Source of the DNA: a bacterium
Lineage (GTDB): Bacteria > SM23-81 > DAOVCL01
NCBI GenBank assembly: GCA_029932675.1
Contig: JAOZPP010000055.1
Coordinates: forward strand, 1 to 21,833
Reading direction: 5' to 3'
Length of the DNA: 21,833 nt
Part shown: one piece after another, positions 3,890 through 17,526 of the stretch
How the letters are laid out: every line of letters begins with the position of its first letter
Numbering within the stretch: position 1 is the first letter of the stretch
Made by a program: the position numbers and the translations under genes
Notes under the pieces: generated by a model
The model's input: only the letters and a program-made list of their open reading frames with translations
What the model was told of the DNA's origin: nothing
The model's database searches: none

Positions 3890-4729
3890 TTAGCGGTGAA
3901 CCAATCCCAACTCCTTCTTTTTCTTAAATATTTCCCTCACCCTTTCCCTAAACCTCGGCCCCGTCTTTAGGATCCAGTTATCGAAGTGGTCCTTGAGTTT
4001 AGGCGGCGTCCAGCGATGGTTGTTCAAGTCTTCTTCCTTAAAATAGAAACCATCGGATCGCTCCTCACAGGGAGTGAGACAGACCGGGCACCTGTAGTGG
4101 CTGCCTTCAATTCGCTCAAAGAGGGTAGAGAAGTCGATGGGGCAATGGGAGGAGACCTGGGATTCAAATCTGTGAGGCACCTGGTTTCGATCTTGACAAA
4201 CCTCCCGCACAGAGGTCAACACCTGGGAAAAGGTCTCACCAAGGAGGACCTCTCCCTGCCCAGCCCCATAAGCTATGTGAGTGTTAACCACCCTGAAGCC
4301 CATTGCCAATAAGAACAGGTTCATCAGAGGGACCTGGAACTGGAACCAATCGGGGAGTGCGGCTATTCCCACACTAATTGCCGGACGCCCCCAGCGGTTT
4401 TTAAACTGCTCGTAGATGACGAGATACCGATCCAAGAGAAGTTTCAATGATCCAGGGATGGAGAGCACATAGGTAGGGGCGACTAAAAGCAGGGCATCAG
4501 CGGCCATTAGCCGCGACAGAAGCTCATATAGGTCATCCCCAAGTTTGCACTCCACACCCTTAAAGAGGCAATTCATACATCCTTGACACTGCTGAATCTT
4601 AAAGTCTTTCAGGTATAAGAGTTCGCCGGAATCTGCACCCCATCTTAAAGCCTCCTTAAGGGCCACCTCCCCTAAACAGTCCGAATTGCCTCTCTTCCGT
4701 TCAGAGGCAATTAACGATACGAAGTGCAA
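3890..4729 (-). CDS. flavodoxin-fold NAD(P)H-dependent oxidoreductase with Cys clusters
   Basis: This 279-residue protein has an N-terminal NADPH-dependent FMN reductase/flavodoxin-like domain: ASERKRGNS as a phosphate-binding loop at about 9-17, and the strand LLLVAPTYVLSIPG. The motif CQGCMNC with a further Cys in VECKL resembles the cysteine cluster of iron-sulfur flavoproteins and may bind FeS or zinc. A C-terminal extension holds a second CPVCLTPC cluster, suggesting a small metal-binding module beyond the basic fold. The start is TTG, supported by GAGGGGAAGAG immediately upstream and an 11-base gap after the biotin carrier gene. Its role could be electron transfer for acyl-CoA oxidation, but the sequence does not show the substrate. 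Confidence 0.75.
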   Translation of the reverse strand: MHFVSLIASERKRGNSDCLGEVALKEALRWGADSGELLYLKDFKIQQCQGCMNCLFKGVECKLGDDLYELLSRLMAADALLLVAPTYVLSIPGSLKLLLDRYLVIYEQFKNRWGRPAISVGIAALPDWFQFQVPLMNLFLLAMGFRVVNTHIAYGAGQGEVLLGETFSQVLTSVREVCQDRNQVPHRFESQVSSHCPIDFSTLFERIEGSHYRCPVCLTPCEERSDGFYFKEEDLNNHRWTPPKLKDHFDNWILKTGPRFRERVREIFKKKKELGLVHR

Positions 4730-4740: not shown

Positions 4741-5271
4741 TTACAAGGCTTCAAGCTCTATAATGGGCTGGAGAGCATCCACTTGGTTGCCCTCCGCAAA
4801 ATTTACCCGCCTCACTACACCTTTAATTGGCGACCTCAATTCATTCTCCATCTTCATCGCCTCAACGATGGCCAGGGTTTGTCCTTCTTCCACCTCATCG
4901 CCACGGGAGACAAGCAGTTTTACTAAGGAGCCAGGCATAGGGGAAGCAACAAGGTTCCCACTTCCTCTCGCCACTTCCCTACCCGAAGTCCCCCTTGCCC
5001 TACCCTTCTCCAGCTCAAAAGCAAAGGATTGACCGGCTACAAAGATGTACACCTTCCCACCGCCTTCAACTGCATAGGCAGTTATTGGCTCACCATCCAT
5101 AAGGAAGGAGTAGCAACCTGAAGAGGAAGTGATTAACTCAACCCTTAGGGGCTTTCCATCCCCAATAGCTACCTGCCAAGATTCTTCCTTGTCCGCTACG
5201 ATGTTTACCCGATATGTCTTGCCTGAACAAACGAACCTATACTCCACTGCCACATATCTCCCATTCGCCAA
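4741..5271 (-). CDS. biotin carboxyl carrier protein of acyl-CoA (methylcrotonyl-CoA) carboxylase
   Basis: This biotinyl carrier subunit moves carboxybiotin between the biotin carboxylase and carboxyltransferase. The C-terminal biotinyl domain (about 108-175) contains PMPG and the EAMKMEN biotinylation site with Lys140. The N-terminal 100 residues (RFVCSGKTYRVNI onward) look like the BT-type linker that joins carboxylase and carrier halves in fused alpha subunits. The longest start is TTG at 5271 with AGGA just upstream. GTG codons at 5253 and 5247, with GGGAG in front, are alternatives. Every start overlaps the end of the biotin carboxylase gene in a different frame, implying translational coupling or a frameshifted fusion. 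By context it is the alpha-2 half of methylcrotonyl-CoA carboxylase. Confidence 0.85.
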   Translation of the reverse strand: MANGRYVAVEYRFVCSGKTYRVNIVADKEESWQVAIGDGKPLRVELITSSSGCYSFLMDGEPITAYAVEGGGKVYIFVAGQSFAFELEKGRARGTSGREVARGSGNLVASPMPGSLVKLLVSRGDEVEEGQTLAIVEAMKMENELRSPIKGVVRRVNFAEGNQVDALQPIIELEAL

Positions 5272-6730
5272 GTTCCTGCCAGGGGGAAGTAGCTTGTGCA
5301 GCTACGATCTCAGGTTTTGTGGGAGCTTCTGATGAAAGTATAGCTGCGACCATAAGTGCCTGATCAAGTGCGTTCCCCTTTGGCCTCCACCCTCCCATAT
5401 TTTTGCTAATAAAATTGGTATAGGTCTGGCCTTCTACAAATTGGGGGTGCTCTAAGAGATCGATGAGAAATCCCACGGTTGTGGATATCCCCAGAATCGC
5501 ATAGTTCTTCAATCCCTGGATTAGCCTTCTGCGGGCAAACTCCCTGGTTTCCCCCCAAGCAATAATTTTTGAAAGTATCGGATCATAGTAAGGCGTTACT
5601 TCACAGCCAGGGTAAATGCCAGAATCTATCCTTAACCCAGGACCCTGTGGTTCTTGCAGGTAAAGGATCTTGCCCGGTGAGGGCAGAAAGTCTTGGGTGG
5701 GGTCTTCGGCATAAATTCGCGCCTCTATGGCATGTCCCCGTTGAGAAATATCTTCTTGTCTAAGGGCCAATTTCTCCCCCGCAGCAATTAAGAGTTGCTG
5801 TTTTACCAGGTCTACACCTGTGGTGAGTTCAGTTATGGGATGCTCAACTTGAACCCTGGCGTTTACCTCAAGGAAGAAAAACCCCTTATCCCTGTCAAGC
5901 AGAAATTCAACCGTTCCCGCATTCGTATATCCGGCAGCCTTTATGGCTTTTTTGGCAACCTCACCCATCCTGGTGCGGAGTTCACCGCTCAGGGTGGGCG
6001 ATGGGGTCTCCTCGACTATCTTCTGATACCTCCGCTGAATTGAACACTCCCGTTCAAATAGGTGAATTACATTGCCGAATTTGTCCGCTAAGACCTGGAA
6101 CTCTATATGGTGCGGCTCCTCAATGTATCTCTCCAGATATACGGATTCATCGCCAAATGCGGACTTGGCCTCGCGTCTCCCGGCAGCTATGGCATTCTTT
6201 AGATCCCTTTCGTTTCTCACAATGCGCATCCCTTTGCCCCCACCACCAAGGGAAGCCTTCACCAAGACCGGATACCCCAAGCTGGATGTCGCTTTTCGGA
6301 AATCCTCAATCCCTTTACCAACAAATGTCATACCAGGGATTATAGGTATACCAGCCTTCTGCATCGTCCCCCGGGCAGCTACCTTATCACCCACCAATCT
6401 GAGGGTAGCCGAGGTTGGCCCCACAAATATAATACCTTCCTCCTCACACCTCTGGGCAAAATCAGGGTTTTCGGCCAGAAACCCATAGCCCGGATGGATG
6501 GCATCCGCACCTACCCTCTTTGCTGTTCTCACAATCCGGTCTATATTTAGGTAGCTCTCACTCGCTGGAGGAGCACCAATGGGGATGGACTCATCAGCGA
6601 TTCGCAAATGCAAAGCTTCGCGATCAGCATCAGAATAGATGGCCACCGTTTTTATACCCAGTTCCTGGCAGGCCCGCATCACCCTTATGGCAATCTCACC
6701 TCTATTTGCGACAAGTACTTTCTTTATCAT
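5237..6730 (-). CDS. biotin carboxylase subunit, methylcrotonyl-CoA carboxylase type
   Basis: This ATP-dependent biotin carboxylase (497 residues) carboxylates biotin on the carrier protein. It shows the N-terminal KKVLVANRGEIAIR motif, the HPGYGFLAEN motif (79-88), the glycine-rich ATP loop GGGGKGM (162-168), the ECSIQRRYQK motif (228-237) and catalytic LEVNARVQVEH (287-297). The C-terminus runs about 45 residues past the usual core. It ends SPWQELGEWEI, which resembles the start of the linker in single-chain methylcrotonyl-CoA carboxylase alpha subunits, and then stops. The carrier domain follows in an overlapping frame. The start ATG is preceded by a G-rich stretch. The pairing with methylcrotonyl-CoA carboxylase is inferred from the flanking LiuC-like gene and the carboxyltransferase, because the sequence alone does not separate the acyl-CoA types. 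Confidence 0.88.
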   Translation of the reverse strand: MIKKVLVANRGEIAIRVMRACQELGIKTVAIYSDADREALHLRIADESIPIGAPPASESYLNIDRIVRTAKRVGADAIHPGYGFLAENPDFAQRCEEEGIIFVGPTSATLRLVGDKVAARGTMQKAGIPIIPGMTFVGKGIEDFRKATSSLGYPVLVKASLGGGGKGMRIVRNERDLKNAIAAGRREAKSAFGDESVYLERYIEEPHHIEFQVLADKFGNVIHLFERECSIQRRYQKIVEETPSPTLSGELRTRMGEVAKKAIKAAGYTNAGTVEFLLDRDKGFFFLEVNARVQVEHPITELTTGVDLVKQQLLIAAGEKLALRQEDISQRGHAIEARIYAEDPTQDFLPSPGKILYLQEPQGPGLRIDSGIYPGCEVTPYYDPILSKIIAWGETREFARRRLIQGLKNYAILGISTTVGFLIDLLEHPQFVEGQTYTNFISKNMGGWRPKGNALDQALMVAAILSSEAPTKPEIVAAQATSPWQELGEWEICGSGV

Positions 6731-6778: not shown

Positions 6779-7555
6779 CTATTGGCTCCACTTTGGCCTT
6801 CTTTTCTCTAAAAATGCCTTAGTCCCCTCTTGCCCCTCCTCAGAGCCCCTTAGTCCGGCAAGGACCCGAGCCGTATACTCCTTTGCTTCCTCAAAGCTCT
6901 GGTTGGGGACACTCTCCAACAGTTCCTTGCATACACCCATCGCCTGGGGTCCGCTGGAGAGGAGTTGGCCGATCAAATCATCAACCACCCCATCAAGCTC
7001 CTCTGGTGCCACAACCCGGTTAACCAATCCGGCGGACAGGGCCTTATCCGCCGATAGCCTCTCCCCAGTGAGGAAGAACTCCCTGGCCCTTCCCTCACCA
7101 CACTTCCTTATCACATAGGGAGATATGCAAGCAGGAACAAGGCCCAGTTTCACCTCACTGAAGCTAAACTTTGCCGTCGATGAGGCAACAGCCAGGTCAC
7201 AGACGGCAACGAGCCCGGTTCCTCCCCCAATGGCCGCCCCGTTGACCCTGGCAATTGTTGGCTTGGGCAAGGAGTAGATGAGATAAAATAAGTCGGCAAG
7301 CTTTAGGGAATTTTTGAAGTTCTCTTCAAATGAATAATCCTTCACTTTGCGCATCCAATTTATATCTGCCCCCGCAGAGAAGGACTTACCTGCCCCGGTC
7401 AAAACAACAACACGAACATCCGCCCGCCCTTTGATCTCGGAAAAGACAGCGGTTAACTCATCGATCATCTGGTCGTTAAAGGCATTATGCACCTCAGGTC
7501 TATTAAAGCTAATCCGGGCAACGAGTTTATCAACTGTGTAAATTATGGTCTCCAT
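6779..7555 (-). CDS. liuC: methylglutaconyl-CoA hydratase-like crotonase
   Basis: This 258-residue crotonase-fold protein is close to bacterial LiuC/GnyH, which interconverts 3-methylglutaconyl-CoA and HMG-CoA in leucine degradation. The match is seen in FSAGADINWMRK (59-70), LPKPTIARVNGAAIGGG (96-112), FSEVKLGLVPACISPYVIR (132-150) and FFLTGERLSA. The position of the first hydratase glutamate is Gly114 (GGGTGLVAVCD), while the second, Glu134, is kept. This is typical of part of the LiuC group, from memory, and distinguishes it from the crotonase at 3101. GGAGGAG precedes the ATG. The gene is 48 bases upstream of the biotin carboxylase and downstream of the carboxyltransferase, separated from the latter by the small TA-like island. 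Confidence 0.85.
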   Translation of the reverse strand: METIIYTVDKLVARISFNRPEVHNAFNDQMIDELTAVFSEIKGRADVRVVVLTGAGKSFSAGADINWMRKVKDYSFEENFKNSLKLADLFYLIYSLPKPTIARVNGAAIGGGTGLVAVCDLAVASSTAKFSFSEVKLGLVPACISPYVIRKCGEGRAREFFLTGERLSADKALSAGLVNRVVAPEELDGVVDDLIGQLLSSGPQAMGVCKELLESVPNQSFEEAKEYTARVLAGLRGSEEGQEGTKAFLEKRRPKWSQ

Positions 7556-7838: not shown

Positions 7839-8063
7839 CTATTTCGGAAGGGGATGAAACTCCTCCTCCTCCTCGATGAGTTCACCCGCATAGATCAGAG
7901 CAGCTCGAATATCCTCCTCACTCACCTCGTATTCCCGGATGATCTCTTCCCTTGTCATCCCACCCGCAAGCCCTCCGATAATCCGGGTCACGGGGACCCT
8001 TGTCCTCTTAATAACAGGTTTACCGTGCTGTATATCAGGATCTATAATAATCCGATCATCCAT
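7839..8063 (-). CDS. DUF433 antitoxin-like protein
   Basis: This complete 74-residue DUF433 protein has the family core: RIIIDPDIQHGKPVIKRTRVPV (about 4-25), then a helix-turn-helix-like LAGGMTREEIIREYEVSEEDIRAAL segment. It ends in an acidic EEEEEF stretch. DUF433 genes are commonly paired with DUF5615 genes, which have a PIN-like fold, as presumed VapBC-like modules; this order (antitoxin first) is usual. AGGAGGTGAAAGGAAG upstream of the ATG is strong. The partner gene immediately downstream is broken, so this may be an orphaned antitoxin. It lies inside the methylcrotonyl-CoA carboxylase operon on the same strand. Confidence 0.85.
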   Translation of the reverse strand: MDDRIIIDPDIQHGKPVIKRTRVPVTRIIGGLAGGMTREEIIREYEVSEEDIRAALIYAGELIEEEEEFHPLPK

Positions 8064-8080
8064 AACTTCCTTTCACCTCC

Positions 8081-8329
8081 TCATAAACAGAGCCCATTCT
8101 GCCGCCAAACTTCAGGATATACCTCTATCCCCTTTGTCCTAATTTCGTAAATCAGAGGAACCCAAGTATCTTCCTCAGCGGAAACAATGGCGACATCGCT
8201 GTATTCATAAGTTTTCACACTGACTTGTGAGCCGTATAAGACCGCCTTAGCAACTTTTATATTTTGCCCCTCAACCAACTCTACAAACCTCCTAATCCTT
8301 TTCACAATCTCTGGCTTAACGATCCAAAC
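8081..8329 (-). pseudogene. degenerate MNT-type nucleotidyltransferase
   Basis: The reading frame (open from 8395 to 8081) shows a nucleotidyltransferase start, IVKPEIVKRIRRFVELVE, then VLYGSQVSVKTYEYSDVAIVS. The canonical pattern is GSxxxGxxxxxSDxDxxV. Here the mid-motif Gly is Val, and the second metal-binding Asp of SDxD is lost through an apparent two-residue loss. The segment between SAEEDTW and PLIYEIRTKGIEVYP appears to be missing about 40 residues compared with family members. A perfect GGAGGTGA at about 8340-8347 points to an original start near 8330, but the codons there no longer give a normal in-frame start. The upstream ATG at 8395 overlaps the carboxyltransferase gene. Probably a relic of a HEPN/MNT-like module. 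Confidence 0.6.
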
Positions 8330-8351
8330 ACCTCTCTCACCTCCAAAACCC

Positions 8352-9959
8352 TCACATCCTGAAGACCCCAAACTTATGGTCTGGTATAGGAGCATTTAGG
8401 GACATTGATATCCCCAAGGCCAGAACATTCCGGGTATCTACTGGATCGATTATTCCATCATCCCAAAGCCTGGCCGTTGAATAGTAGGCGCTTGACTGTT
8501 CCTCATACTCCTTGAGAATAGGTCTTCTCAGCTCATCTTTTTCTTCATCCGTTAATCTCTTACCTTCTTTTTCCAGAGCCCTCACTTTGACATCAGTGAG
8601 GACATTGGCTGCTTGCTCTCCTCCCATCACACATATCTTAGCATTGGGCCACATCCAGAGAAGTCTTGGCTCATACGCCCTTCCGCACATCCCATAATTG
8701 CCTGCACCATAGGAACCACCAATGATCACTGTGAATTTAGGCACGTCTGCATTTGCTACTGCATGCACCATCTTGGCACCATCTTTGGCTATCCCTTGAT
8801 GTTCATACTTTTTGCCCACAATAAAGCCAGTTATATTCTGAAAGAAGATAAGAGGAATCTTCCTCACCGCGCACATCTCTATGAAATGAGCCCCCTTAAC
8901 TGAAGACTCAGAAAAGAGGACACCGTTATTGGCAAGAATACCAACAGGATAACCCATAATTCGGGCAAATCCACAGACTAGGGTGGTCCCATATAGCTCT
9001 TTGAATTCGTGAAATTCGCTTCTATCGACGATCCTCGCTATTACTTCGCGCATATCAAACGGCTTTTTCAGCCCCTTTGGTATTATCCCGTATAGCTCCT
9101 CCGGATCATAGGCAGGATCCTCTGGCTCCGAACGCCCAAGTTCAAACCTATTAGCAGGAGAAAGGTTCTGCACGATGTTCCTTGTTATCTCTAAGGCATG
9201 TTCATCATCCACTGCATAATGGTCGGCAACCCCTGATATCCGGCAATGCACATCTGCCCCCCCGAGCTCCTCAGCAGTAACCACTTCACCAGTTGCCGCT
9301 TTGACAAGTGGTGGACCACCAATGTAGATTGTCCCTTCTCCCTTGACGATAACTACCTCATCGCTCATCGCTGGCTGATATGCACCTCCAGCCGTGCAAA
9401 ACCCCATCACTGCAGAGATCTGGGGGATATTCATTGCCGACATCCGTGCTTGGTTGTAGAAGATGCGCCCGAAGTGATATTTGTCGGGAAAGGTTCCTGC
9501 CTGATAGGGAAGGAAGATCCCACCAGAATCCACAAGGTATATACAGGGCAACCTGTTCTCCATTGCTATCTCCTGAGCCCGCACATGCTTTTTTATGGTC
9601 TCCGGAATATAGGTTCCCCCCTTAACTGTAGCATCATTGGCTACAACCATCACTTCTCTCCCATGAACAACCCCTATACCGGTGACTATTCCTGCACCAG
9701 GATGCTCGTTGTTATACATCCCCCAACTGGCTAAGGGGGAAAGCTCAAGGAAAGGCGTATTTTGATCAAAAAGTAGCTTCAACCTATCCCGGACAAAGAG
9801 CTTGCCCCGCGCTCGGTGCTTTTCATGCATCCTGGGAGGACCACCTCTTTTCACTTCTCCCAACCTCTCCTTAAGCTCCTTTACCAACGATTTCAGGTGT
9901 TCCTTGTTCGTCTTAAATTCTGGGCTATTTGGCTTTATCTTCGACTCTATGCGATACAT
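8352..9959 (-). CDS. liuB: methylcrotonyl-CoA carboxylase carboxyltransferase (beta) subunit
   Basis: This 535-residue carboxyltransferase transfers CO2 from carboxybiotin to 3-methylcrotonyl-CoA, forming 3-methylglutaconyl-CoA. The assignment to the methylcrotonyl branch rather than the propionyl branch rests on several blocks. These are [54 protein letters not shown] and [18 protein letters not shown]. The C-terminal half has [32 protein letters not shown] and [10 protein letters not shown], the acyl-CoA binding half of the crotonase-like fold. The length fits the family (about 535). AAGGA lies just upstream of the ATG, whose leader carries a 9-bp repeat array and an S23 relic. It is the only carboxyltransferase in the window although there are two biotin carboxylase/carrier pairs. 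Confidence 0.92.
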
Positions 9960-9968
9960 CTGGGTTCC

Positions 9969-10004
9969 TTGAGTTTATTGAGTTGAAGTGCTTGATTTGA
10001 GCGA
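9969..10004. repeat. 9-bp-period array, TTGAGT type
   Basis: The units are TTGAGTTTA, TTGAGTTGA, a weak AGTGCTTGA, and TTTGAGCGA, in 9-base phase. This orientation is the inverse of the ACTCAA array at 10117-10143. The two face each other across the S23 relic. The array lies in the leader of the carboxyltransferase gene. Confidence 0.55.
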
Positions 10005-10033
10005 GTAGGTAATAAATCCAGAGAGCAACTTGT

Positions 10034-10112
10034 CACTTCCTCCGCCTTCTCATAAAGCATACTAAAGGCCTCCTGCGTAATATACCCTTGATTTAAACCA
10101 ATATTTGGATTC
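10034..10112 (-). pseudogene. C-terminal relic of a four-helix-bundle (S23) protein gene
   Basis: The minus strand encodes ESKYWF at about 10112-10095 in one frame. In the next frame it encodes LNQGYITQEAFSMLYEKAEEV, ending at 10034. Together these match the last third of S23/four-helix-bundle proteins, where a 'xxYWL' helix is followed by 'GYIxxExFxxLYxxAxEV'. A frameshift separates the two parts, and no N-terminal two thirds are found, so this is a remnant. It sits between convergent-orientation 9-bp arrays, in the gap between the DUF35 and carboxyltransferase genes. Confidence 0.5.
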
Positions 10113-10116
10113 AAGG

Positions 10117-10143
10117 AACTCTACTAACCCAATGAACTCAACA
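10117..10143. repeat. 9-bp-period array, ACTCAA type
   Basis: There are three units, AACTCTACT, AACCCAATG and AACTCAACA. They overlap the stop codon and C-terminal codons of the DUF35 gene (stop at 10124). With the TTGAGT array at 9969-10004 it brackets the S23 relic. Confidence 0.5.
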
Positions 10144-10522
10144 CACACTTATATCCATAGCAGAGGATACCTGTTTTGCCTTCCTCTTGAATCTTACGAA
10201 AGACAAGCCTCACCGGCTTCCCAATTTCAACCTCCTCTGGCCGGCAATCCACCACTTGGGCGGTTATTCGCACCCCATCCCCCAACTCCACCACAGCCAC
10301 AACATAGGGGGTCTGGTCAGCGAATTGCTCTGGAGCAACCCTAATTACGGTGAAGGTAACTATCTTACCCCCGTCGCTGAGGCGCACCCCCTCAAACTCT
10401 CTCGATCCACATTTCGGACAGACAAGCCGGGGAGGGAAAAGGACCTTACCACAGGATTTACATTTCGAGGCCTCGAGCCTATATCTTTGGGGTATCTCCC
10501 TTTTATACCTTGGCACCGGCAT
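10124..10522 (-). CDS. DUF35 zinc-ribbon/OB-fold acyl-CoA-binding partner protein
   Basis: This 132-residue protein has an N-terminal rubredoxin-like zinc ribbon: CKSC at Cys21/Cys24 and CPKC at Cys35/Cys38. It is followed by an OB-fold ([28 protein letters not shown] onward). In archaea, DUF35 proteins bridge acetoacetyl-CoA thiolase and HMG-CoA synthase, passing acetoacetyl-CoA between them. Here the three genes are adjacent in the order HMG-CoA synthase, thiolase, DUF35, so the same complex is expected. AGGAGGTAATT before the ATG is a strong ribosome-binding site. The C-terminal codons overlap a 9-bp repeat array, so the last few residues may be recent. Confidence 0.9.
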
Positions 10523-10540
10523 AATTACCTCCTGATCCTT

Positions 10541-10585
10541 GGTTTATTGAGTTGATTGAGTCCTTTGGGTCAAATGGGTTAAACG
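10541..10585. repeat. 9-bp-period array, inverse orientation (AGTTxATTG)
   Basis: Five consecutive 9-base units: GGTTTATTG, AGTTGATTG, AGTCCTTTG, GGTCAAATG, GGTTAAACG. The array lies just upstream of the DUF35 ribosome-binding site. It is inverted relative to the array at 10605-10640, so the transcript of this gap could fold into an imperfect stem. Confidence 0.6.
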
Positions 10586-10604
10586 AAATCGTTCCAATAA
10601 CATA

Positions 10605-10640
10605 ATGGACTCAACGACTGAGTAGACTCAAACGACTCCA
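10605..10640. repeat. 9-bp-period array, GACTCAA type
   Basis: Four units, ATGGACTCA, ACGACTGAG, TAGACTCAA and ACGACTCCA, in 9-base register. The array spans the thiolase stop codon at 10628 and forms the other arm of the inverted pair with 10541-10585. Confidence 0.6.
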
Positions 10641-11776
10641 AGTATATGCACCACCGATGATGCACCTGAACCACCCATATTTTGGGTGAGACCAACCTTG
10701 GCACCCTTTACTTGACGCTTCCCAGCCTGGCCGCGGAGCTGTTCCACTACCTCCACCACCTGGGCCACCCCGGTGGCGCCCACTGGATGGCCTTTGGCTT
10801 TTAAGCCACCAGAGGGGTTGATGGGGATCTTCCCATCGAGGGCTGTGTAACCCTTCTCGGTAAATTCCCCACCCTTCCCCTTTTCTACGAAGCCTAATTC
10901 CTCAATCACACATATTTCCGCGATGGTGAAGCAATCATGAACCTCGGCCAGATCAATCCTCTCAGGCCCCAAGTTTGCCTGTTTAAATGCATTCTCTGCC
11001 GAAACCTTAACTGCCCTCAAAGAGGTTATATCCCCCCTCTGATGCAGGGCCAACGAGTCGGTAGCCGCTGCTGAGGCAAGTATTCTTACCGGTACGTCAG
11101 CATACCTCTTCGCCGCAGCAAGGGGGCAAAGTATCGCCGCGGCGGCCCCGTCGGTCACCGGCGAACAGTCCAACAGGGTCAGGGGGTCGGCCACCATAGT
11201 GGAGTTTAACACAGCCTCAACCTTAATCTCCCTTTGAAATTGGGCATTAGGGTTTAGGGCCCCATTCTTATGATTCTTCACGGCTACCTGAGCAAGCTGT
11301 TCCCTTGTTGTGCCGTATCGATGCATATGGGCGCGGGCAATCATTGCATACAGCCCAGGAAAGGTTACTCCATGATAGACCTCATACTCCTGATCACTGG
11401 CCGTTGAGAGGGCGTAGGTCACGTCTGCACCGTCCCACATCTTCTCCACACCGCCAACAAGGACTATATCGCTCATCCCGGAGGCAACCTCGATAAATCC
11501 CGCCCGCAAGGCCATACCCCCAGAGGCGCAGGCAGACTCCACCCTCACCGTGGGAATAGGGGCCACCCCTAAATAGTCAGCCATCAATGCCCCTATATGC
11601 TCCTGGCCCACAAAGAGGCCAGCGGTCATATTGCCCACCCACATTGAATCGATATGATCAACTCCCGCGTCGGCTATAGCCTTGAGGGAAGCCTCCACAA
11701 AGATATCCCGAATCGATTTGTCCCATAGCTCACCAAACTTAGTCATCCCGCACCCGATAATGGCTACATCTCTCAT
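10628..11776 (-). CDS. thiolase of the HMG-CoA synthase/DUF35 triad (acetoacetyl-CoA thiolase, archaeal type)
   Basis: This 382-residue thiolase probably condenses two acetyl-CoA to acetoacetyl-CoA, or does the reverse. The nucleophile Cys83 lies in ESACASGG, the EVHDCF block has His280 and Cys282, and KGHPVGATG has His330. The length and the HDCF motif match the archaeal and SCP2-like thiolases that associate with DUF35 proteins, rather than AtoB/FadA. GGGAGGGG precedes the ATG, and the gene follows the HMG-CoA synthase by 23 bases. It differs clearly from the thiolase at 459, which is longer and has a divergent C-terminus, so the two likely use different substrates. Acetoacetyl-CoA as substrate is inferred from the neighbours. 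Confidence 0.9.
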
Positions 11777-11799
11777 TTTCCCCTCCCATTCTCCAAGGA

Positions 11800-12846
11800 T
11801 TAACTATTCATTATTATCTTCCCTCTGAATTTGGCATAAAGGCCATAATTCAAGTATATCGGGCTATACTCCAGAAGTTCCTTAACCTTCACTGCCTTTT
11901 CCCTCACCTCATTGATCCTCTCCGTCATCCTGAATACGAATGCGTCACTCCCCGCCCCCGACCCAAAGGAGACGAGCAAGATAAGCTCACCAGGCTTGGA
12001 CACATCAAAGGTAGCAGAGAGACCAGTGGGCGATGAGCCAGAGTATGTATTTCCCATCAAGGGAACTATCCACCCAGGATCAAGCTGTTCCCTAAGAAAA
12101 CCAAGCCTCTTGCCCACAGTTAACGGAAACTTACCATTGGGCATGTGGAAAACAGCGTAGGCAAAATCGGCGGGCTTGAGGCCAGCCTTTTGCATGATCC
12201 CCCTACCCGCACCCAGGATATGTTTAAAGTAAGCAGGCTCACCGGTAAACCTGCCCCCATGGCGGGGATAGAACGCTCCCTCCCTTCTCCAGAAGTCAGG
12301 TGTATCGGTTGTGTAGGAGTAAGTTTCGACCACCTCAGCCACTACCCCCTCCCCCCCGAAGATGAAGGCAGATCCTCCAGCCGATGCCGAATATTCAAGC
12401 GCATCCCCTGGCGCCCCCTGAGAAGTGTCAGCACCCACTGACAAGGCATACTTGACCTCCCCCGCCTTCACTATGCTATATCCCACCCACATGGCCTCAG
12501 TCCCTGCCTTGCAGGCGAACTCGTAATCGGCGATATGGACCTCTGGAGTTATCCCCAAGGCCTCGGCAACGATTGTGCCTGAGGGCTTCACCGCATAGGG
12601 ATGGGACTCTGAGCCAACATAAACAGCTCCTATCTCTCCTGGATCAATCCCTGCCCGCTTCAGAGCATTCCTGGAGGCCTCAACCGCGATGGTCACCGTA
12701 TCCTCATCGGGAGCAGGGACCGTCTTCTCCTTTAAAAGAAGACCCCTCTTTATAGTTTCCGGATCCATCCCCCACTGGTGAGCAATCTCCTCTGCCTTAA
12801 TCCGGTACCTGGGGAGATAGGACCCATAACCTACTATGCCAACCAT
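11800..12846 (-). CDS. hydroxymethylglutaryl-CoA synthase, archaeal type
   Basis: This enzyme condenses acetyl-CoA with acetoacetyl-CoA to HMG-CoA. From the ATG at 12846 the protein has 348 residues, the usual length of archaeal enzymes, and begins [17 protein letters not shown] strong GGAGAGGGGGAAAA supports this start over the longer frame reaching 12924. The catalytic triad is visible: Glu80 in [11 protein letters not shown], Cys112 in FACKAGTEA, and His234 in [19 protein letters not shown] and [10 protein letters not shown] complete the thiolase-fold active site. It leads the synthase-thiolase-DUF35 triad. In a leucine-catabolic cluster an HMG-CoA lyase would be expected instead, so the direction of flux through HMG-CoA is an open question. 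Confidence 0.92.
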
Positions 12847-12956
12847 TTTTCCCCCTCTCCATAAAACTTGGGTTGCTACATTCGCTATGTTCTCCAGGAG
12901 GCTAACGCCCCTCTGGTGCTCCACAACCTTCCCCTTGCACGGATTGCCCGTTGCGG

Positions 12957-12971
12957 AATTTCTTAGAAATT
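12957..12971. repeat. short perfect palindrome in the gap before HMG-CoA synthase
   Basis: AATTTCTTAGAAATT is a 15-base palindrome (7-bp arms, one central base) just after the stop of the PLP enzyme gene, in the 133-base gap 12847-12979. It has no T-tract on the minus strand, so it is a weak hairpin or an operator-like site rather than a clear terminator. Nothing else definite is seen in the gap. Confidence 0.3.
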
Positions 12972-12979
12972 AGGAAAGG

Positions 12980-14149
12980 TTAAATTAACTCCAGCGCTTG
13001 GTCTAAGTCGGCGATTATGTCCTTGGGGTTCTCTAAACCAACAGAAAGCCTTACAAAACCTGGCTTTATACCCACCTTCAGACATTCCTCTTCCGAGTAG
13101 GTGGAATGGGTCATACTCGCCGGGTGCTCTATCAAAGTATCCACGTCACCGAGGCTGACTGCCAGCGTGCAGAGCTCGACCCTGTCCATCAAGGTCTTGC
13201 CCGCCTCCTTCCCCCCCTTTACATCGAACCCCAACATCCCTCCAAACCCACTCATCTGCTTGCTGGCAAGGGAGTGGCCAGGATGAGATTCCAGTCCTGG
13301 GTAATAGACCCTTTCTATCTTTGGATGGGACTGCAGGTACTCCGCTACTTGCATGGCGTTGGTTGAGTGTCTCTCCATTCGCAGGGCCAAGGTCTTCAAT
13401 CCCCTTAGGGTGAGCCAAGCATTAAAGGGTGAGATGGTAGCTCCCACCTCTATTGCCGTCTCCGCATTAAGTTCCTCGATGAATTCATCAGTCCCCACGG
13501 TAATACCGCCAATTAGGTCACCGTGGCCCCCTAAATATTTGGTCATCGAATGGACAACCACATCGGCACCAAGCTCAATTGGCCGCTGTAGGCAGGGAGT
13601 GGCAAATGTGTTATCCACTATAAGGGGAATATTGTGACGGTGGGCAATCTCAGCACAGCCAGCGATGTCCACGATCTTCAGAGTTGGATTGGCTGGAGTC
13701 TCGGTGAAGATGAGCTTGGTATTCTCCTTAATTGCCCCCTCCACCCTGTTGAGATCAGCCGTATCCACGAATGTAACGCTTATCCCTAACCTTGAAAGCA
13801 CTTGATTGAATTGGGAGTAGGTGCCTCCATAGATGGTGTCATCAGATATTATGTGGTCACCGCTGCCAGCTATGGTAATTATCGTTGAGAATATCGCTGC
13901 CAACCCTGAAGCAAAGACCACGCCTGCCTCTGCAGATTCCAAAAGGGCTATCTTCTTAGCCAAAAGATCAATAGTAGGGTTCCCTACCCTGGTATAGATG
14001 TATCCCTCCTCTTCCCCTTTAAACAGCCTGGCTCCGTGTTCTGCATCCTTAAAGGCAAAAGTAGAAGTTTGATATATTGGTGGCGTAATGGCTCCAGTTA
14101 CCCCATCCGGCTTTTGACCACCATGGACTACCTTCGTATCTATCTCCAT
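12980..14149 (-). CDS. trans-sulfuration PLP enzyme (cystathionine gamma-lyase/synthase or methionine gamma-lyase type)
   Basis: This Cys/Met-metabolism PLP enzyme of 389 residues starts from the ATG at 14149. The ATG overlaps the nitroreductase stop by one base (TGATG), with GAGGAGG in front. It shows YTRVGNPT for phosphate and substrate binding, ETPANPT, the DNTFATP aspartate strand, and the Schiff-base lysine (Lys205 with the GTG start counted) in HSMTKYLGGHGD. The hallmark Cys of methionine gamma-lyase is Gly here (YGGTYSQF), favouring gamma-lyase/synthase activity, although family labels overlap. Cleavage of cystathionine, homoserine or methionine would give 2-oxobutyrate, a source of propionyl-CoA. 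That fits the methylmalonyl-CoA genes upstream. The exact substrate is not decided. Confidence 0.88.
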   Translation of the reverse strand: MEIDTKVVHGGQKPDGVTGAITPPIYQTSTFAFKDAEHGARLFKGEEEGYIYTRVGNPTIDLLAKKIALLESAEAGVVFASGLAAIFSTIITIAGSGDHIISDDTIYGGTYSQFNQVLSRLGISVTFVDTADLNRVEGAIKENTKLIFTETPANPTLKIVDIAGCAEIAHRHNIPLIVDNTFATPCLQRPIELGADVVVHSMTKYLGGHGDLIGGITVGTDEFIEELNAETAIEVGATISPFNAWLTLRGLKTLALRMERHSTNAMQVAEYLQSHPKIERVYYPGLESHPGHSLASKQMSGFGGMLGFDVKGGKEAGKTLMDRVELCTLAVSLGDVDTLIEHPASMTHSTYSEEECLKVGIKPGFVRLSVGLENPKDIIADLDQALELI

Positions 14150-14712
14150 CACCCCTCCTCATTTAGCGGGTGCCCATACCTGTCATGGTAAACGAATGTG
14201 ACCAACTCCTTTCTTGGCGGCGGCTTTGGGCCCTCTGCTGGATAGCCTACTGGCATAAGTTCAACCACAGCGATCCCATCGGGGACACCAACTATTTGAC
14301 CGGCTCGCTTGGCGTCAAACGCACCCACATGCACCGTACCCAATCCAAGGGAATGGGCGGCAAGGGTCAGGTTTTGAAGGGCAAGCGCTACATCAAACAT
14401 AAACCAGTCGCCCTTATCTGTCCTTGGCTCGCCCTTGTAGTAGCCTGCCCTCCGTAACTCTGCACAGGCTACCAAGACAACCGGTGCCTCAACCATTGCC
14501 GGGCGGGCGGGATTCCTCTCTGATAAGGTCTGGCTGAGCTTCTTCTTCACATCCTCATCCCTCACCACAACAAATCTCCAGCATTGGGTGTTCGCCCAAG
14601 AGGGCGCCCAACGGGCCGCCTCGAGCAGCTCTTTTAGTAAATGATCAGGAACGTCGATAGACTTGTATCTCCTTATGCTTCGCCTATGTTTGATTGCCTC
14701 CATTACATCCAT
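14149..14712 (-). CDS. nitroreductase family FMN protein
   Basis: This 187-residue nitroreductase-fold flavoprotein has the N-terminal FMN-binding RRSIRRYK (10-17), LLEAARWAPSWANTQCWRFVVV, and the late GLGTVHVGAF and GIAVVELMPVGYPAE segments. Members of the family reduce diverse electron acceptors with NAD(P)H; the natural substrate here is unknown. AAGGAGAATCT precedes the ATG. The gene is 30 bases after the epimerase gene and overlaps the next gene by one base, indicating tight translational coupling with the PLP enzyme. It may serve as a redox partner, but this is only inferred from position. Confidence 0.88.
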   Translation of the reverse strand: MDVMEAIKHRRSIRRYKSIDVPDHLLKELLEAARWAPSWANTQCWRFVVVRDEDVKKKLSQTLSERNPARPAMVEAPVVLVACAELRRAGYYKGEPRTDKGDWFMFDVALALQNLTLAAHSLGLGTVHVGAFDAKRAGQIVGVPDGIAVVELMPVGYPAEGPKPPPRKELVTFVYHDRYGHPLNEEG

Positions 14713-14742: not shown

Positions 14743-15138
14743 TTACTTCTCACAAAGCTCTATAAGAACACCGTTGGTTGAGCTTGGATGTAAAAATGCT
14801 ATCTTTTTAGCGGACACACCTCTCTTGGGCACCTCATCCACCAGTTTGATACCCTTCGACTGGAGGGTCTCCAAAACCTTCTCGATCCCCTTGACCGCGA
14901 AGCAGAGGTGATGTATCCCCTCCCCTCTCCTCTCTAAGAACTTGGCAACCGGACTATCTTCACCCTTAGGCTCAAGGAGCTCAATCCTTACCCCCCCTCC
15001 GGCATCAAAGATGGCTATCTTCAGTTTCTGAGACTCTACCTCTCTGAGGGCAAGAAGGGGAAACCCGAAAAGGTCCTGCCAAATCTTGGTTCCCTTTTCG
15101 ATGCTCCTTGTCGCTATCCCAATGTGATCAAGCTTCAT
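14743..15138 (-). CDS. mce: methylmalonyl-CoA epimerase
   Basis: This enzyme converts (S)- to (R)-methylmalonyl-CoA between propionyl-CoA carboxylase and the mutase. From the ATG at 15138 the product has 131 residues, typical for the vicinal-oxygen-chelate epimerases. It starts KLDHIGIATRSIEKG, where the His is a metal ligand. IELLEP and GEGIHHLCFAV carry further ligand residues, and the C-terminal ELCEK contains the final glutamate. The open frame extends to a TTG at 15186, adding 16 unlikely residues. The ATG has no clear Shine-Dalgarno site and lies 14 bases beyond the CoA-transferase stop, so re-initiation after that stop is likely. Confidence 0.9.
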   Translation of the reverse strand: MKLDHIGIATRSIEKGTKIWQDLFGFPLLALREVESQKLKIAIFDAGGGVRIELLEPKGEDSPVAKFLERRGEGIHHLCFAVKGIEKVLETLQSKGIKLVDEVPKRGVSAKKIAFLHPSSTNGVLIELCEK

Positions 15139-15151
15139 AATCAATAAATAA

Positions 15152-16447
15152 TCAGGCCAGTTTTCGTTTCCTTGCCTCCTCTTCAAGCCAAGGCCGAAAC
15201 TTGGGGTGGGCCACCTTGATCAATGCCGTCGCCCTCTCCCTCAGATTCTTACCATGGAGATAGGCCACCCCATATTCTGTGACTACCCAGTGGACATCGG
15301 CCCTGGTAGTTACTACCCCAGCCCCCTGTTTAAGCCAGGGAACTATTCTGGAGACCTCCCCCCCCTTCGCCGTCGAGGGAAGGGCAATTATTGGTTTCCC
15401 CCCCTTCGATTGGGCTGCCCCCCGAATGAAATCCACCTGGCCGCCGAAGCCAGAGTAGATCCTAAATCCAATCGAATCAGAACAGACCTGACCGGTGAGA
15501 TCGACCTCTATTGCTGAGTTTATGGCTACCATCCGTTCGTTTTGGGAGATGATAAAAGGATGATTGGTGTAGTTTGCTGGATGGAGCTCAAATATTGGGT
15601 TGTTATCCGCATACTCATAAACTCTCTTTGAGCCCAAAAGGAAGGTAGCCACCACCTTATTGGGATGGAGGGTTTTCCTTGAGCCGGTTATGATCCCCGC
15701 CTCGATTGCCTCCACAATGCCATCGGAGACCATCTCAGTGTGAATCCCCAGATCCTTTTTGCCCTCCATTGCCTTAAGGGCAGCATTCGGTATTCCCCCA
15801 ATACCCAGTTGAAGCGTAGAGCCATCATCAACTATCTCAGCGATGTATTCGCCGATCTTCCTCTCTGTAGCAGTGAATTCCTTCGGTTTGAGTTCAGGCA
15901 GATCCCTGGAGACCTCCACTATCTTGTCTACCTGGGAGACATGGATGAAGGAGTCCCCCAAAGTTCTGGGCATCTTTTCGTTTACCTCGGCAATAACTAC
16001 CTTTGCACACTTGGTGGCCGCCTTGGAGACCAGACACTCCACCCCAAAGCTCATAAACCCATGCTCATCTGGGGGGGAGAGATGGACGAAGGCTACATCC
16101 AATTGCATCAGGCCGGAATAGAAAAGGTCGGGGATCTCATAGAGGAAGACAGGTATGTAATCGGCCCGACCCTCGTTTATGGCCTCGCGGTCCGCAGGGC
16201 CAACGAAGAGTGAATTGTGCCTGAAGTGACCCTCCATCTCTGGTCTGGAGAGGGGGTCTTCACCCAGCAAAAGGACATGGGTTATCTCCACCCCATGGAG
16301 CTCATCTTTACGCTCTGCTAAGGCCTCCACCAATTGAAAAGGAGTGGCCGCATTGCCACTGATATAGACCCTATCCCCATCCTTTACAAAAGCCACTGCC
16401 TCCTCAAGGGAGGAAAGCTTTTTCCTATAATCGTCAGGCCAAGCCAT
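15152..16447 (-). CDS. acetyl-CoA hydrolase/transferase family CoA-transferase
   Basis: This 431-residue protein is of the class I CoA-transferase family that includes 4-hydroxybutyrate and butyryl-CoA:acetate CoA-transferases. The glycine-rich GIGGIPNA (about 217-224) binds CoA. The glutamate in GIHTEM (residue 239 counting from the upstream GTG) matches the catalytic Glu that forms the CoA thioester intermediate. SGFGGQVDF and VVTEYGVAYL are C-terminal family blocks. The ATG at 16447 shares one base with the alanine dehydrogenase stop (TGATG). A GTG one codon upstream is an alternative. It probably exchanges CoA between acetate and propionyl-, butyryl- or succinyl-CoA. The specificity is not readable from the sequence. 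Confidence 0.88.
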   Translation of the reverse strand: MAWPDDYRKKLSSLEEAVAFVKDGDRVYISGNAATPFQLVEALAERKDELHGVEITHVLLLGEDPLSRPEMEGHFRHNSLFVGPADREAINEGRADYIPVFLYEIPDLFYSGLMQLDVAFVHLSPPDEHGFMSFGVECLVSKAATKCAKVVIAEVNEKMPRTLGDSFIHVSQVDKIVEVSRDLPELKPKEFTATERKIGEYIAEIVDDGSTLQLGIGGIPNAALKAMEGKKDLGIHTEMVSDGIVEAIEAGIITGSRKTLHPNKVVATFLLGSKRVYEYADNNPIFELHPANYTNHPFIISQNERMVAINSAIEVDLTGQVCSDSIGFRIYSGFGGQVDFIRGAAQSKGGKPIIALPSTAKGGEVSRIVPWLKQGAGVVTTRADVHWVVTEYGVAYLHGKNLRERATALIKVAHPKFRPWLEEEARKRKLA

Positions 16448-17526
16448 CACCTATATTCCTTCTCTACCCTTCCCTGACGAACATAGATCCCCCTTCTAAT
16501 TGCGGGGCACTCCTCCAGGGCCTTGTCCAAACCCAGCTCAACCAAGGATTTCAGATAGGGAAGAACAGCACCGGTCATCGCATGGGTAGCCGTTCTGGCC
16601 ACCAGGGTGGTGGCGTTGGGCATACAAAAGTGGATTACCCCTTCCACATTATAGATAAACTTGCCGGAAGGGGCAATCTTCGCTGTCTCCACACATCCAC
16701 CTTGGTCTATGGAGAAATCTAAGATCACCGCACCCCGGCGCATCGATTTGACCATCTCCTTGGTAACCAGGATGGGGGTCCTCTTCCCGGGCACCAAAAC
16801 GGCACCGATGAGCACATCGGCGAACCTGACCAGCTTCTCTATGTTCTGTTTAGTGGCGAACATAGTAGTCACCCGACGTTCCATATGGGCAGCGATGTCC
16901 TCCAATTTGTCCCGATCTGTATCAATAACATAGACATTGGCCCCGATGCCCGCAAAGCTCTTCGCTGCGTTACACCCCAGAGTCCCCCCCCCAATAATCA
17001 CCACATCAGCAGGTGGAATCCCCGGGATGCCTCCCAGCAGGATGCCGCGCCCCGGCGACTCCAACAGCCTCCCAGCTATCTGCACGGCAAGCTTGCCGGC
17101 TATCTCGCTCATCGGGATGACCACCGGGAGCTCCCCGTCATCCTCTTGAATTATCTCATACCCAATTACCGTGTTCCCTTTAGTAGTCAGCGTCTGGATC
17201 AATTCCCGAGGAGCAGTAACTAAGTGAAAGAAACCGGTGAGCGTCTGTCCCTCTTTTATATGTTTGTACTCTTCCTTCCCCTGGGGAGGCCTTACCTTGA
17301 GGACGACATCAGCCCTCTTGTAGGCCTCTTCCTTGGAGTATACTATGCGCGCACCTGCCCTCTCATAGTCGGAGTTCGAAAACCCAGCCCCCTCGCCTGC
17401 CCCGTTCTCCACATAGACTTGAGCCTTGCCCTCAACAAGTTCTTTCACCCCCATTGGAGAGAGTCCCACTCGGCACTCAGGCACCCCCTTAAACCTGGGC
17501 AACTCCCTCGGTATACCAAAAATCAT
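16447..17526 (-). CDS. ald: alanine dehydrogenase / PntA-like NAD(H) dehydrogenase
   Basis: This 359-residue protein interconverts L-alanine with pyruvate and ammonia using NAD+. The N-terminal domain shows GIPRELPRFKGVPECRVGLSP with the conserved Arg. PMSEIAGKLAVQIAG is the hinge helix, and the Rossmann loop VVIIGGGTLGCNAA sits in the middle. LIGAVLVPGKRTPILV and FSIDQGGCVET follow, matching alanine dehydrogenase over the related lysine and transhydrogenase proteins. The length (about 360-370) is normal. GGGAGG precedes the ATG. It follows the mutase gene by 61 bases and is translationally coupled to the CoA-transferase gene. Its presence fits an amino-acid-fermenting operon, where it could also recycle NADH by making alanine. 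Confidence 0.85.
   Translation of the reverse strand: MIFGIPRELPRFKGVPECRVGLSPMGVKELVEGKAQVYVENGAGEGAGFSNSDYERAGARIVYSKEEAYKRADVVLKVRPPQGKEEYKHIKEGQTLTGFFHLVTAPRELIQTLTTKGNTVIGYEIIQEDDGELPVVIPMSEIAGKLAVQIAGRLLESPGRGILLGGIPGIPPADVVIIGGGTLGCNAAKSFAGIGANVYVIDTDRDKLEDIAAHMERRVTTMFATKQNIEKLVRFADVLIGAVLVPGKRTPILVTKEMVKSMRRGAVILDFSIDQGGCVETAKIAPSGKFIYNVEGVIHFCMPNATTLVARTATHAMTGAVLPYLKSLVELGLDKALEECPAIRRGIYVRQGRVEKEYR

What the first reader, a model, noticed from the sequence alone, without database searches (positions are those of the whole stretch)
9959..11800. HMG-CoA synthase triad embedded in a leucine-degradation cluster that lacks HMG-CoA lyase
Seen: archaeal-type HMG-CoA synthase, thiolase and DUF35 genes (10124-12846) lie directly upstream of a methylcrotonyl-CoA carboxylase beta gene and a LiuC-like hydratase, all co-directional. 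Known: leucine catabolism ends with HMG-CoA lyase, while the synthase makes HMG-CoA. In myxobacteria, synthase plus LiuC act in reverse to build isovaleryl-CoA precursors. Inference: the cluster may run HMG-CoA to methylglutaconyl-CoA to methylcrotonyl-CoA (a biosynthetic or reversible route). Alternatively, the synthase-thiolase-DUF35 complex replaces the lyase. A separate mevalonate role is the dull alternative.
Basis: partly seen in the sequence, partly recalled or inferred. Interest (0 to 1): 0.7.

Follow-up and report, generated by a model that had tools for sequence, protein, structure and literature searches.

The report
HMG-CoA synthase replacing lyase in leucine breakdown
In many uncultured anaerobic bacteria the genes for a complex known for building HMG-CoA (in archaea, the first steps towards membrane lipids) sit where the leucine-breakdown pathway normally has its final cutting enzyme, which suggests that the complex runs backwards to cut HMG-CoA into three acetyl-CoA and so saves energy.

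Summary
The window carries a complete archaeal-type HMG-CoA synthase / acetoacetyl-CoA thiolase / DUF35 triad, catalytic residues intact, co-directional with methylcrotonyl-CoA carboxylase (beta, biotin carboxylase, BCCP) and a LiuC-like hydratase. The genome (97% complete) has no HMGL-superfamily protein, no HMG-CoA reductase, and has IspG (MEP pathway). The order synthase-thiolase-DUF35-MCCb-LiuC-BC-BCCP recurs, complete or nearly so, in 25 of 80 related loci from many phyla, including cultured Desulfurella acetivorans; none of those 25 genomes has an HMG-CoA lyase over the family cut-off. In an unbiased set of 69 bacterial genomes with MCC, lyase and triad avoid each other (5 both, 16 triad only, 36 lyase only, 12 neither; Fisher p = 1e-4). 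Each sits beside MCCb in some genomes (16 lyase, 9 triad), never both. Best explanation: the triad runs in reverse (HMG-CoA + 2 CoA -> 3 acetyl-CoA) as a lyase replacement in anaerobic leucine/isovalerate catabolism, keeping a thioester that the lyase route spends. Direction is inferred from gene content, not measured. The biosynthetic (myxobacteria-like) direction is less likely but not excluded.

The parts
11800..12846 (-). archaeal-type HMG-CoA synthase, proposed to cleave HMG-CoA (retro-aldol) to acetoacetyl-CoA and acetyl-CoA
   Evidence: TIGR00748 541 bits; 61% identical to 6ESQ HMGCS; catalytic Glu82 and Cys114 kept (residues named in PMC6392133); start ATG 12846
10628..11776 (-). acetoacetyl-CoA thiolase of the complex
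   Evidence: 53% identical to 6ESQ thiolase; nucleophile Cys85, HDCF and GHP motifs kept
10124..10522 (-). DUF35/ChsH2-like zinc-ribbon OB-fold scaffold subunit
   Evidence: PF12172 + PF01796; 49% identical to 6ESQ DUF35; two CxxC
8352..9959 (-). 3-methylcrotonyl-CoA carboxylase beta subunit
   Evidence: 730-745 bits to solved MCC beta, 469 to geranyl-CoA carboxylase, 291 to T. maritima PCC beta
6779..7555 (-). LiuC-like 3-methylglutaconyl-CoA hydratase
   Evidence: ECH_1; best NCBIfam hits PRK07468 and gamma-carboxygeranoyl-CoA hydratase, both below cut-off; best solved match 3i47
5237..6730 (-). biotin carboxylase subunit of MCC
   Evidence: Biotin_carb_N/C + CPSase_L_D2; kept next to MCCb/LiuC in relatives
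4741..5271 (-). biotin carboxyl carrier protein of MCC
   Evidence: Biotin_lipoyl; biotin site EAMKM
3890..4729 (-). NADPH-dependent FMN reductase-like flavoprotein, role unknown
   Evidence: PF03358; kept in L043, L047
3101..3874 (-). crotonase (short-chain enoyl-CoA hydratase)
   Evidence: NF004475 353 bits, just below the 394-bit cut-off
1718..3049 (-). 3-hydroxyacyl-CoA dehydrogenase, long variant
   Evidence: PF02737 + PF00725
459..1706 (-). second SCP2-type thiolase
   Evidence: Thiolase_C_1; best solved match 4bi9; VEGACGSG, HDCF and GHP motifs present
12980..14152 (-). methionine gamma-lyase family enzyme (amino-acid catabolism context)
   Evidence: PF01053; TIGR01328 525 bits, just below cut-off 550
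14743..15186 (-). methylmalonyl-CoA epimerase
   Evidence: TIGR03081 142 bits over cut-off 115
15152..16450 (-). acetyl-CoA hydrolase/transferase family CoA-transferase (4-hydroxybutyrate/butyryl-CoA:acetate type)
   Evidence: PF02550 + PF13336; 616 bits to 9vag
16447..17526 (-). alanine dehydrogenase
   Evidence: PF05222 + PF01262; TIGR00518 351 bits, below cut-off 392
17588..19135 (-). methylmalonyl-CoA mutase large-subunit catalytic domain
   Evidence: TIGR00641 809 bits
19591..21594 (-). second biotin carrier (19591-20085) and biotin carboxylase (20086-21594), likely for propionyl-CoA carboxylase
   Evidence: PF00364; Biotin_carb_N/C; an mmdA-type carboxyltransferase precedes them in relatives such as L041-L043

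Best explanation
The triad is the terminal module of an anaerobic leucine/isovalerate catabolic pathway and stands in for HMG-CoA lyase. Leucine -> 2-ketoisocaproate -> isovaleryl-CoA -> 3-methylcrotonyl-CoA -> (MCC, ATP) 3-methylglutaconyl-CoA -> (LiuC-like hydratase) HMG-CoA. The synthase then works backwards: HMG-CoA is re-thioesterified on Cys114 and retro-aldol cleaved, giving acetyl-CoA and acetoacetyl-CoA, which the attached thiolase, over a CoA site shared with DUF35, splits to two more acetyl-CoA. Net: HMG-CoA + 2 CoA -> 3 acetyl-CoA. The physical coupling would let the favourable thiolysis pull the unfavourable reverse-synthase step. Payoff: no free acetoacetate is made, so no thioester is spent to reactivate it (about one more ATP per leucine or isovalerate than with the lyase). 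Shown: gene identities, catalytic residues, synteny across phyla, absence of lyase and HMG-CoA reductase. Inferred: direction of flux, complex formation in these bacteria, energetics.
For: Own genome: no HMGL-superfamily protein, no HMG-CoA reductase, IspG present, so the triad does not serve mevalonate and there is no hidden lyase. The upstream half of a catabolic route is encoded: four acyl-CoA dehydrogenases, three of them in a row with EtfBA, and five POR_N 2-oxoacid:ferredoxin oxidoreductase genes. Synteny synthase-thiolase-DUF35-MCCb-LiuC-BC-BCCP in 25 of 80 loci (full in most; some cut by contig ends or lacking one gene) from WOR-3, Cloacimonadota, Zixibacteria, Gemmatimonadota, Aminicenantes, Coatesbacteria, Desulfurella and others; HMG-CoA lyase over cut-off in 0 of those 25 genomes, HMG-CoA reductase in 4 of 25. 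Unbiased 386-genome sample: 69 carry MCC beta; lyase/triad 2x2 = 5 both, 16 triad only, 36 lyase only, 12 neither, Fisher p 1.2e-4; one genome per family p 3.8e-4; own phylum left out p 1.8e-3. Lyase lies within ~3 kb of MCCb in 16 genomes, triad within ~6 kb in 9, never both in one genome (coordinates). In 98 genomes, archaeal-type synthase in 6 of 17 with MCC vs 3 of 81 without, p 7e-4. Desulfurella's operon has a sigma-54 regulator, acyl-CoA dehydrogenase, ETF subunits, CoA-transferase-like gene and MCC around the triad, i.e. looks like a regulated catabolic operon.
Against: Direction is not measured. HMG-CoA synthase is textbook exergonic in the forward direction. Five of 69 MCC genomes have both triad and lyase, and 12 have neither, so MCC without lyase does not always mean triad. 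Many relatives (e.g. Ignavibacteria) have a triad not next to MCC, also without HMG-CoA reductase, whose role is unexplained. Four of the 25 linked genomes have HMG-CoA reductase and could use the triad both ways. Isovalerate breakdown in the anaerobe Desulfococcus multivorans uses a lyase (PMC5109826), so anaerobiosis alone does not require the swap.
Confidence: 0.7

Rival explanations
1. Biosynthetic direction: the triad makes HMG-CoA from 3 acetyl-CoA, LiuC dehydrates it, MCC in reverse decarboxylates to methylcrotonyl-CoA, and reduction gives isovaleryl-CoA for iso-branched lipids or, via ferredoxin oxidoreductase, leucine (like the myxobacterial alternative isovaleryl-CoA route).
For: Every step is in principle reversible; the window's genome has no HMGL-like protein at all, hence no isopropylmalate synthase, so a leucine-independent source of isovaleryl units would be useful; forward synthase is exergonic.
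Against: The myxobacterial route uses a CoA-transferase-like decarboxylase pair (AibA/AibB), not an ATP-dependent biotin carboxylase; here BC and BCCP are dedicated neighbours. Context is catabolic: Met gamma-lyase family enzyme, alanine dehydrogenase, methylmalonyl-CoA branch, CoA-transferase, sigma-54 regulator in Desulfurella. Desulfurella also encodes LeuA-sized (514-535 aa) HMGL-like proteins, so it probably has no need of this route for leucine.
Confidence: 0.14
2. Ordinary mevalonate module that happens to be adjacent.
For: The archaeal triad is the start of the mevalonate pathway; 4 of 25 linked genomes also have HMG-CoA reductase.
Against: No HMG-CoA reductase and IspG present in this genome; reductase absent in 21 of 25 linked genomes; two bacterial synthases from genomes with HMG-CoA reductase (L037, L038) fall outside the clade.
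Confidence: 0.03
3. Bidirectional node: the complex runs near equilibrium and is used for breakdown or synthesis as needed, with the HMG-CoA pool shared with other acyl-CoA routes (crotonase/HCDH/second thiolase in the same operon).
For: Neighbouring crotonase, 3-hydroxyacyl-CoA dehydrogenase and second thiolase could draw on the same acetoacetyl-CoA; 4 linked genomes have HMG-CoA reductase.
Against: No positive evidence for a synthetic sink for HMG-CoA in this genome.
Confidence: 0.1
4. The thiolase + DUF35 pair acts as a retro-aldolase of the Ltp2/ChsH2 or Sal kind and the synthase has another role.
For: DUF35 pairs with aldolase-like thiolases in steroid side-chain degradation (PMC12329534).
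Against: The closest solved relatives are the archaeal acetoacetyl-CoA thiolase and DUF35 of 6ESQ (406 and 123 bits) and not the Ltp2/ChsH2 pair (6ok1: 114 and 62 bits); full thiolase triad Cys/His/His kept.
Confidence: 0.03

Closest known systems
[quoted passage not shown] Methanothermococcus thermolithotrophicus)
   Same: All three subunits, in one row, 49-61% identical, catalytic Glu82/Cys114 and Cys85 kept.
   Different: Works in mevalonate synthesis in archaea; here no HMG-CoA reductase, MEP pathway marker present, linked to MCC.
Bacterial liu leucine/isovalerate operon (liuABCDE; also the Desulfococcus multivorans isovalerate cluster, PMC5109826)
   Same: MCC beta/alpha, LiuC-type hydratase, acyl-CoA dehydrogenase (elsewhere in this genome).
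   Different: LiuE/HmgL, the lyase, is missing and the triad stands in its place.
Myxobacterial alternative isovaleryl-CoA biosynthesis (MvaS, LiuC, AibA/B, AibC)
   Same: Uses HMG-CoA synthase plus LiuC.
   Different: Classical synthase and CoA-transferase-like decarboxylase (own knowledge); here an archaeal-type complex plus an ATP-dependent biotin carboxylase.
Reversed oxidative TCA cycle with citrate synthase run backwards (Desulfurella acetivorans; PMC9768450)
   Same: Same logic: a Claisen-type synthase thought one-way runs in the cleavage direction and keeps the thioester; the same organism carries the MCC-linked triad (L116), with a citrate synthase gene about 3 kb upstream.
   Different: Different enzyme and substrate; reversal of HMG-CoA synthase is not demonstrated.

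Membership tests
Archaeal-type HMG-CoA synthase complex | Synthase over TIGR00748 cut-off with Glu/Cys catalytic residues | tested here: met
   541 bits vs 353 cut-off; Glu82, Cys114 kept
Archaeal-type HMG-CoA synthase complex | Adjacent acetoacetyl-CoA thiolase and DUF35 subunits homologous to 6ESQ chains | tested here: met
   406 and 123 bits to 6ESQ A and E
Archaeal-type HMG-CoA synthase complex | Assembly into one complex with a shared CoA site | not testable with these tools
   No complex prediction offered; inferred from homology
Archaeal-type HMG-CoA synthase complex | Serves the mevalonate pathway (HMG-CoA reductase present) | tested here: not met
   0 PF00368 hits in the genome; IspG present
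liu leucine/isovalerate degradation operon | MCC beta + biotin carboxylase/BCCP + LiuC-type hydratase | tested here: met
liu leucine/isovalerate degradation operon | HMG-CoA lyase (LiuE) | tested here: not met
   no PF00682 or NF004283 hit in the genome
liu leucine/isovalerate degradation operon | Isovaleryl-CoA dehydrogenase | tested here: inconclusive
   none in the window; four acyl-CoA dehydrogenases elsewhere, substrate not assignable
Myxobacterial alternative isovaleryl-CoA biosynthesis | AibA/AibB methylglutaconyl-CoA decarboxylase | tested here: inconclusive
   absent from the window; whole genome not searched for it
Mevalonate pathway | HMG-CoA reductase | tested here: not met

The most novel reading that the evidence does not exclude
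HMG-CoA synthase, taught as a committed one-way anabolic step, works in reverse as a catabolic thioester-conserving HMG-CoA cleavage complex in bacteria of many phyla: a second example, after reversed citrate synthase, of a Claisen-type synthase run backwards, and an energy-saving leucine pathway of anaerobes.
Probability: 0.65. Interest if true: 0.82.

Novelty: new variant of a known kind. Interest (0 to 1): 0.72.

Why it matters
If true, it changes how leucine/isovalerate breakdown is predicted in anaerobic genomes (a missing lyase would not mean a broken pathway), shows that mevalonate must not be annotated from HMG-CoA synthase alone in bacteria, and gives a bioenergetic reason for the synthase-thiolase coupling: in reverse, the thiolase pulls the synthase. 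By my count isovalerate -> 3 acetate yields no net substrate-level ATP with the lyase and about one with the reverse synthase, which would matter to organisms living near the thermodynamic limit. It is testable now in a cultured species, Desulfurella acetivorans.

Tried and rejected
Mevalonate role: rejected by gene content. Hidden lyase elsewhere: rejected. Chance adjacency: rejected by recurrence in 25 loci and in 9 of 20 triad genomes of an unbiased sample (binomial about 4e-17 under random placement). A distinctive residue in the MCC-linked synthases (HMPNGKF vs HQPNGKF after the catalytic His) was tried as a direction marker and dropped: both forms occur in linked and unlinked loci. Expectation that unlinked triads would belong to mevalonate genomes failed: only 1 of 25 has HMG-CoA reductase. 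Literature searches found no report of a synthase replacing the lyase; only open-access PMC papers are held, and the 6ESQ paper is not. AlphaFold was not used: single-chain models could not decide direction.
Full report
WHAT IS THERE. The window is a whole 21,833-base contig (C37) of a 3.03 Mb genome judged 97% complete and 0.24% contaminated. Its 20 genes all lie on the minus strand. Reading downstream: biotin carboxylase and carrier (second set), a four-helix-bundle protein, methylmalonyl-CoA mutase large domain, alanine dehydrogenase, CoA-transferase, methylmalonyl-CoA epimerase, nitroreductase, Met gamma-lyase family enzyme, HMG-CoA synthase, thiolase, DUF35, MCC beta, LiuC-like hydratase, biotin carboxylase, biotin carrier, FMN reductase-like protein, crotonase, 3-hydroxyacyl-CoA dehydrogenase, second thiolase. 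Gaps are mostly short or negative; the largest, 796 bases between MCC beta and LiuC, holds an unassigned 104-aa frame, at the place where relatives carry a small cupin or a PDDEXK_3 gene.

THE TRIAD IS INTACT. The three chains that match best in the PDB are those of the archaeal thiolase/HMG-CoA synthase/DUF35 complex 6ESQ, at 61%, 53% and 49% identity for synthase, thiolase and DUF35. The synthase keeps Glu82 and Cys114 and the thiolase Cys85, the residues named as catalytic in PMC6392133, with HDCF and GHP motifs; DUF35 keeps two CxxC. The carboxylase is MCC by score: 745 and 730 bits to two solved MCC betas, 469 to geranyl-CoA carboxylase, 291 to the T. maritima propionyl-CoA carboxylase beta. 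The top hit, 9tps at 760 bits, is named propionyl-CoA carboxylase; I take that for a question of naming, not a test. The hydratase is of the LiuC/AtuE kind by nearest families, all below their cut-offs, so its exact substrate is inferred.

Neither is there: no HMGL-superfamily hit in the genome, although the same search rings in all 14 control genomes, no HMG-CoA reductase, and IspG of the MEP pathway at 496 bits.

THE REST OF A LEUCINE ROUTE. The genome has four acyl-CoA dehydrogenases, three in a row with EtfB, EtfA and a large flavin/Fe-S protein, next to a second mutase, its B12 subunit and an mmdA-type carboxyltransferase, and five POR_N genes of 2-oxoacid:ferredoxin oxidoreductases. So leucine -> isovaleryl-CoA -> methylcrotonyl-CoA is plausible, though no single gene can be pinned to isovaleryl-CoA.

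CONSERVATION. The order synthase-thiolase-DUF35-MCCb-LiuC-BC-BCCP, complete or nearly so, is kept in 25 of them, across WOR-3, Cloacimonadota, Zixibacteria, Gemmatimonadota, Aminicenantes, Coatesbacteria, an Armatimonadetes bin and the cultured, complete genome of Desulfurella acetivorans; some loci are cut by contig ends or lack one gene, and Desulfurella's hydratase is only a distant crotonase homologue. Of the 25 genomes none has HMG-CoA lyase over the family cut-off and four have HMG-CoA reductase. The best lyase-like hits among them, in Desulfurella, are 60-bit matches in 514-516 aa frames, the size of isopropylmalate/citramalate synthases. In the synthase tree (quick method) MCC-linked rows dominate two groups, and two synthases from bacteria with HMG-CoA reductase fall outside with the archaeal sequence.

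UNBIASED TEST. To avoid picking genomes by the triad, I took 386 bacterial genomes chosen only by kinship and kept the 69 with MCC beta at E < 1e-180. Lyase and archaeal-type synthase were then sought in all 69. Counts: both 5, synthase only 16 (one, G426, in two pieces), lyase only 36, neither 12; Fisher p = 1.2e-4, odds ratio 0.10; with one genome per family p = 3.8e-4; without the window's phylum p = 1.8e-3. From the coordinates, the lyase lies within about 3 kb of MCCb in 16 genomes and the synthase within about 6 kb in 9 (G000, G072, G061, G155, G325, G152, G382, G287, G216), never both. In the 98-genome sample the archaeal-type synthase occurs in 6 of 17 genomes with MCC and 3 of 81 without (p = 7e-4). 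Thus the triad goes with MCC and takes the lyase's place. Related genomes are not independent, so these p-values are guides.

MECHANISM. Forward, the synthase makes HMG-CoA from acetoacetyl-CoA and acetyl-CoA with hydrolysis of the enzyme thioester; the thiolase supplies acetoacetyl-CoA against its equilibrium. From general knowledge (not computed here) thiolysis of acetoacetyl-CoA is worth about -26 kJ/mol and thioester hydrolysis about -30, so the coupled reaction HMG-CoA + 2 CoA <-> 3 acetyl-CoA + H2O should lie within some 10 kJ/mol of equilibrium. A complex that passes acetoacetyl-CoA between the two sites would then work both ways. Run backwards it yields three thioesters, whereas the lyase gives one plus acetoacetate, whose activation costs a thioester. 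For isovalerate I count net substrate-level ATP of about +1 against 0. The parallel is citrate synthase run backwards in D. acetivorans (PMC9768450), which carries the MCC-linked triad in an operon-like row (sigma-54 regulator, acyl-CoA dehydrogenase, synthase, thiolase, DUF35, hydratase, two ETF-like genes, MCC beta, biotin carboxylase, carrier, epimerase-like, CoA-transferase-like) with a citrate synthase gene about 3 kb upstream of the triad.

WHAT SPEAKS AGAINST. Direction is not measured. The myxobacterial precedent runs HMG-CoA -> isovaleryl-CoA, and this genome lacks isopropylmalate synthase, so a biosynthetic use is conceivable; but that precedent uses a decarboxylase of another kind (own knowledge), whereas the cluster devotes a biotin carboxylase and carrier to MCC, and the gene neighbours are catabolic. 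Twelve MCC genomes have neither lyase nor triad, five have both, and many Ignavibacteria have a triad away from MCC (some with only a ~50% identical carboxylase) and without HMG-CoA reductase; those are unexplained. In the window's own phylum G003 keeps thiolase-DUF35-MCCb-LiuC without a detectable synthase, and in G002 the synthase lies on another contig, while the same-genus genome G001 (90% complete) has neither synthase nor MCC.

LITERATURE. No held paper describes a synthase replacing the lyase. The library is open-access PMC only, so novelty is provisional. Desulfococcus multivorans degrades isovalerate with Mcc, EchA2 and HmgL (PMC5109826), the canonical anaerobic case.

VERDICT. Observation confirmed. 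Lyase replacement by a reverse-running archaeal-type synthase complex is the best explanation (0.7); the biosynthetic direction is the main rival (0.14). New variant of a known kind: known enzymes, known operon, new combination and probably new direction.

Noticed in passing
window 19153-19554; also L048, L049, L050: A 23S rRNA-IVP/four-helix-bundle gene (TIGR02436) sits inside the operon, and in relatives similar genes sit at other points of the same operon (e.g. between thiolase and DUF35 in L049/L050), as if it moves as a small hitchhiker.
   Followed up: partly
L041 14480-14785, L053 12389-12784, L051, L048: PDDEXK_3 nuclease-like small genes are inserted at varying points within the triad/MCC operon of WOR-3 and Cloacimonadota relatives.
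   Followed up: partly
window 8081-8395 (-); L041 14857-15201, L049 19354-19671: Between MCCb and LiuC relatives have a small conserved cupin gene; the window has a 104-aa frame there with no Pfam match.
   Followed up: partly
L056, L057, L068, L076, L082, L107 (Ignavibacteria): Triads not linked to MCC lie next to AtuA (acyclic terpene utilisation family), MiaA and protein-isoaspartate methyltransferase genes, in genomes mostly without HMG-CoA reductase; their role is unexplained.
   Followed up: partly
L170 (G003) and L171/L033 (G002): In the window's phylum one genome keeps thiolase-DUF35-MCCb-LiuC with no detectable synthase, another has the synthase on a different contig: synthase loss, relocation or an assembly gap.
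   Followed up: partly
L116 5760-7073: In Desulfurella acetivorans a citrate synthase gene lies about 3 kb upstream of the MCC-linked synthase, with only a sigma-54 regulator and an acyl-CoA dehydrogenase gene between them.
   Followed up: partly
window 459-1706 and 1718-3049: An SCP2-type second thiolase and an unusually long 3-hydroxyacyl-CoA dehydrogenase (443 aa) at the downstream end are kept as a pair in Zixibacteria (L091) and, with the crotonase, directly upstream of the synthase in L054.
   Followed up: no
G000 C84 (L130) 3659-18999: Three acyl-CoA dehydrogenases, EtfBA and a 1010-aa flavin/Fer4_20 protein beside a second methylmalonyl-CoA mutase, B12 subunit, metallo-beta-lactamase fold protein and mmdA-type carboxyltransferase; parts of this set lie next to the triad in L052, L053 and L105.
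   Followed up: partly
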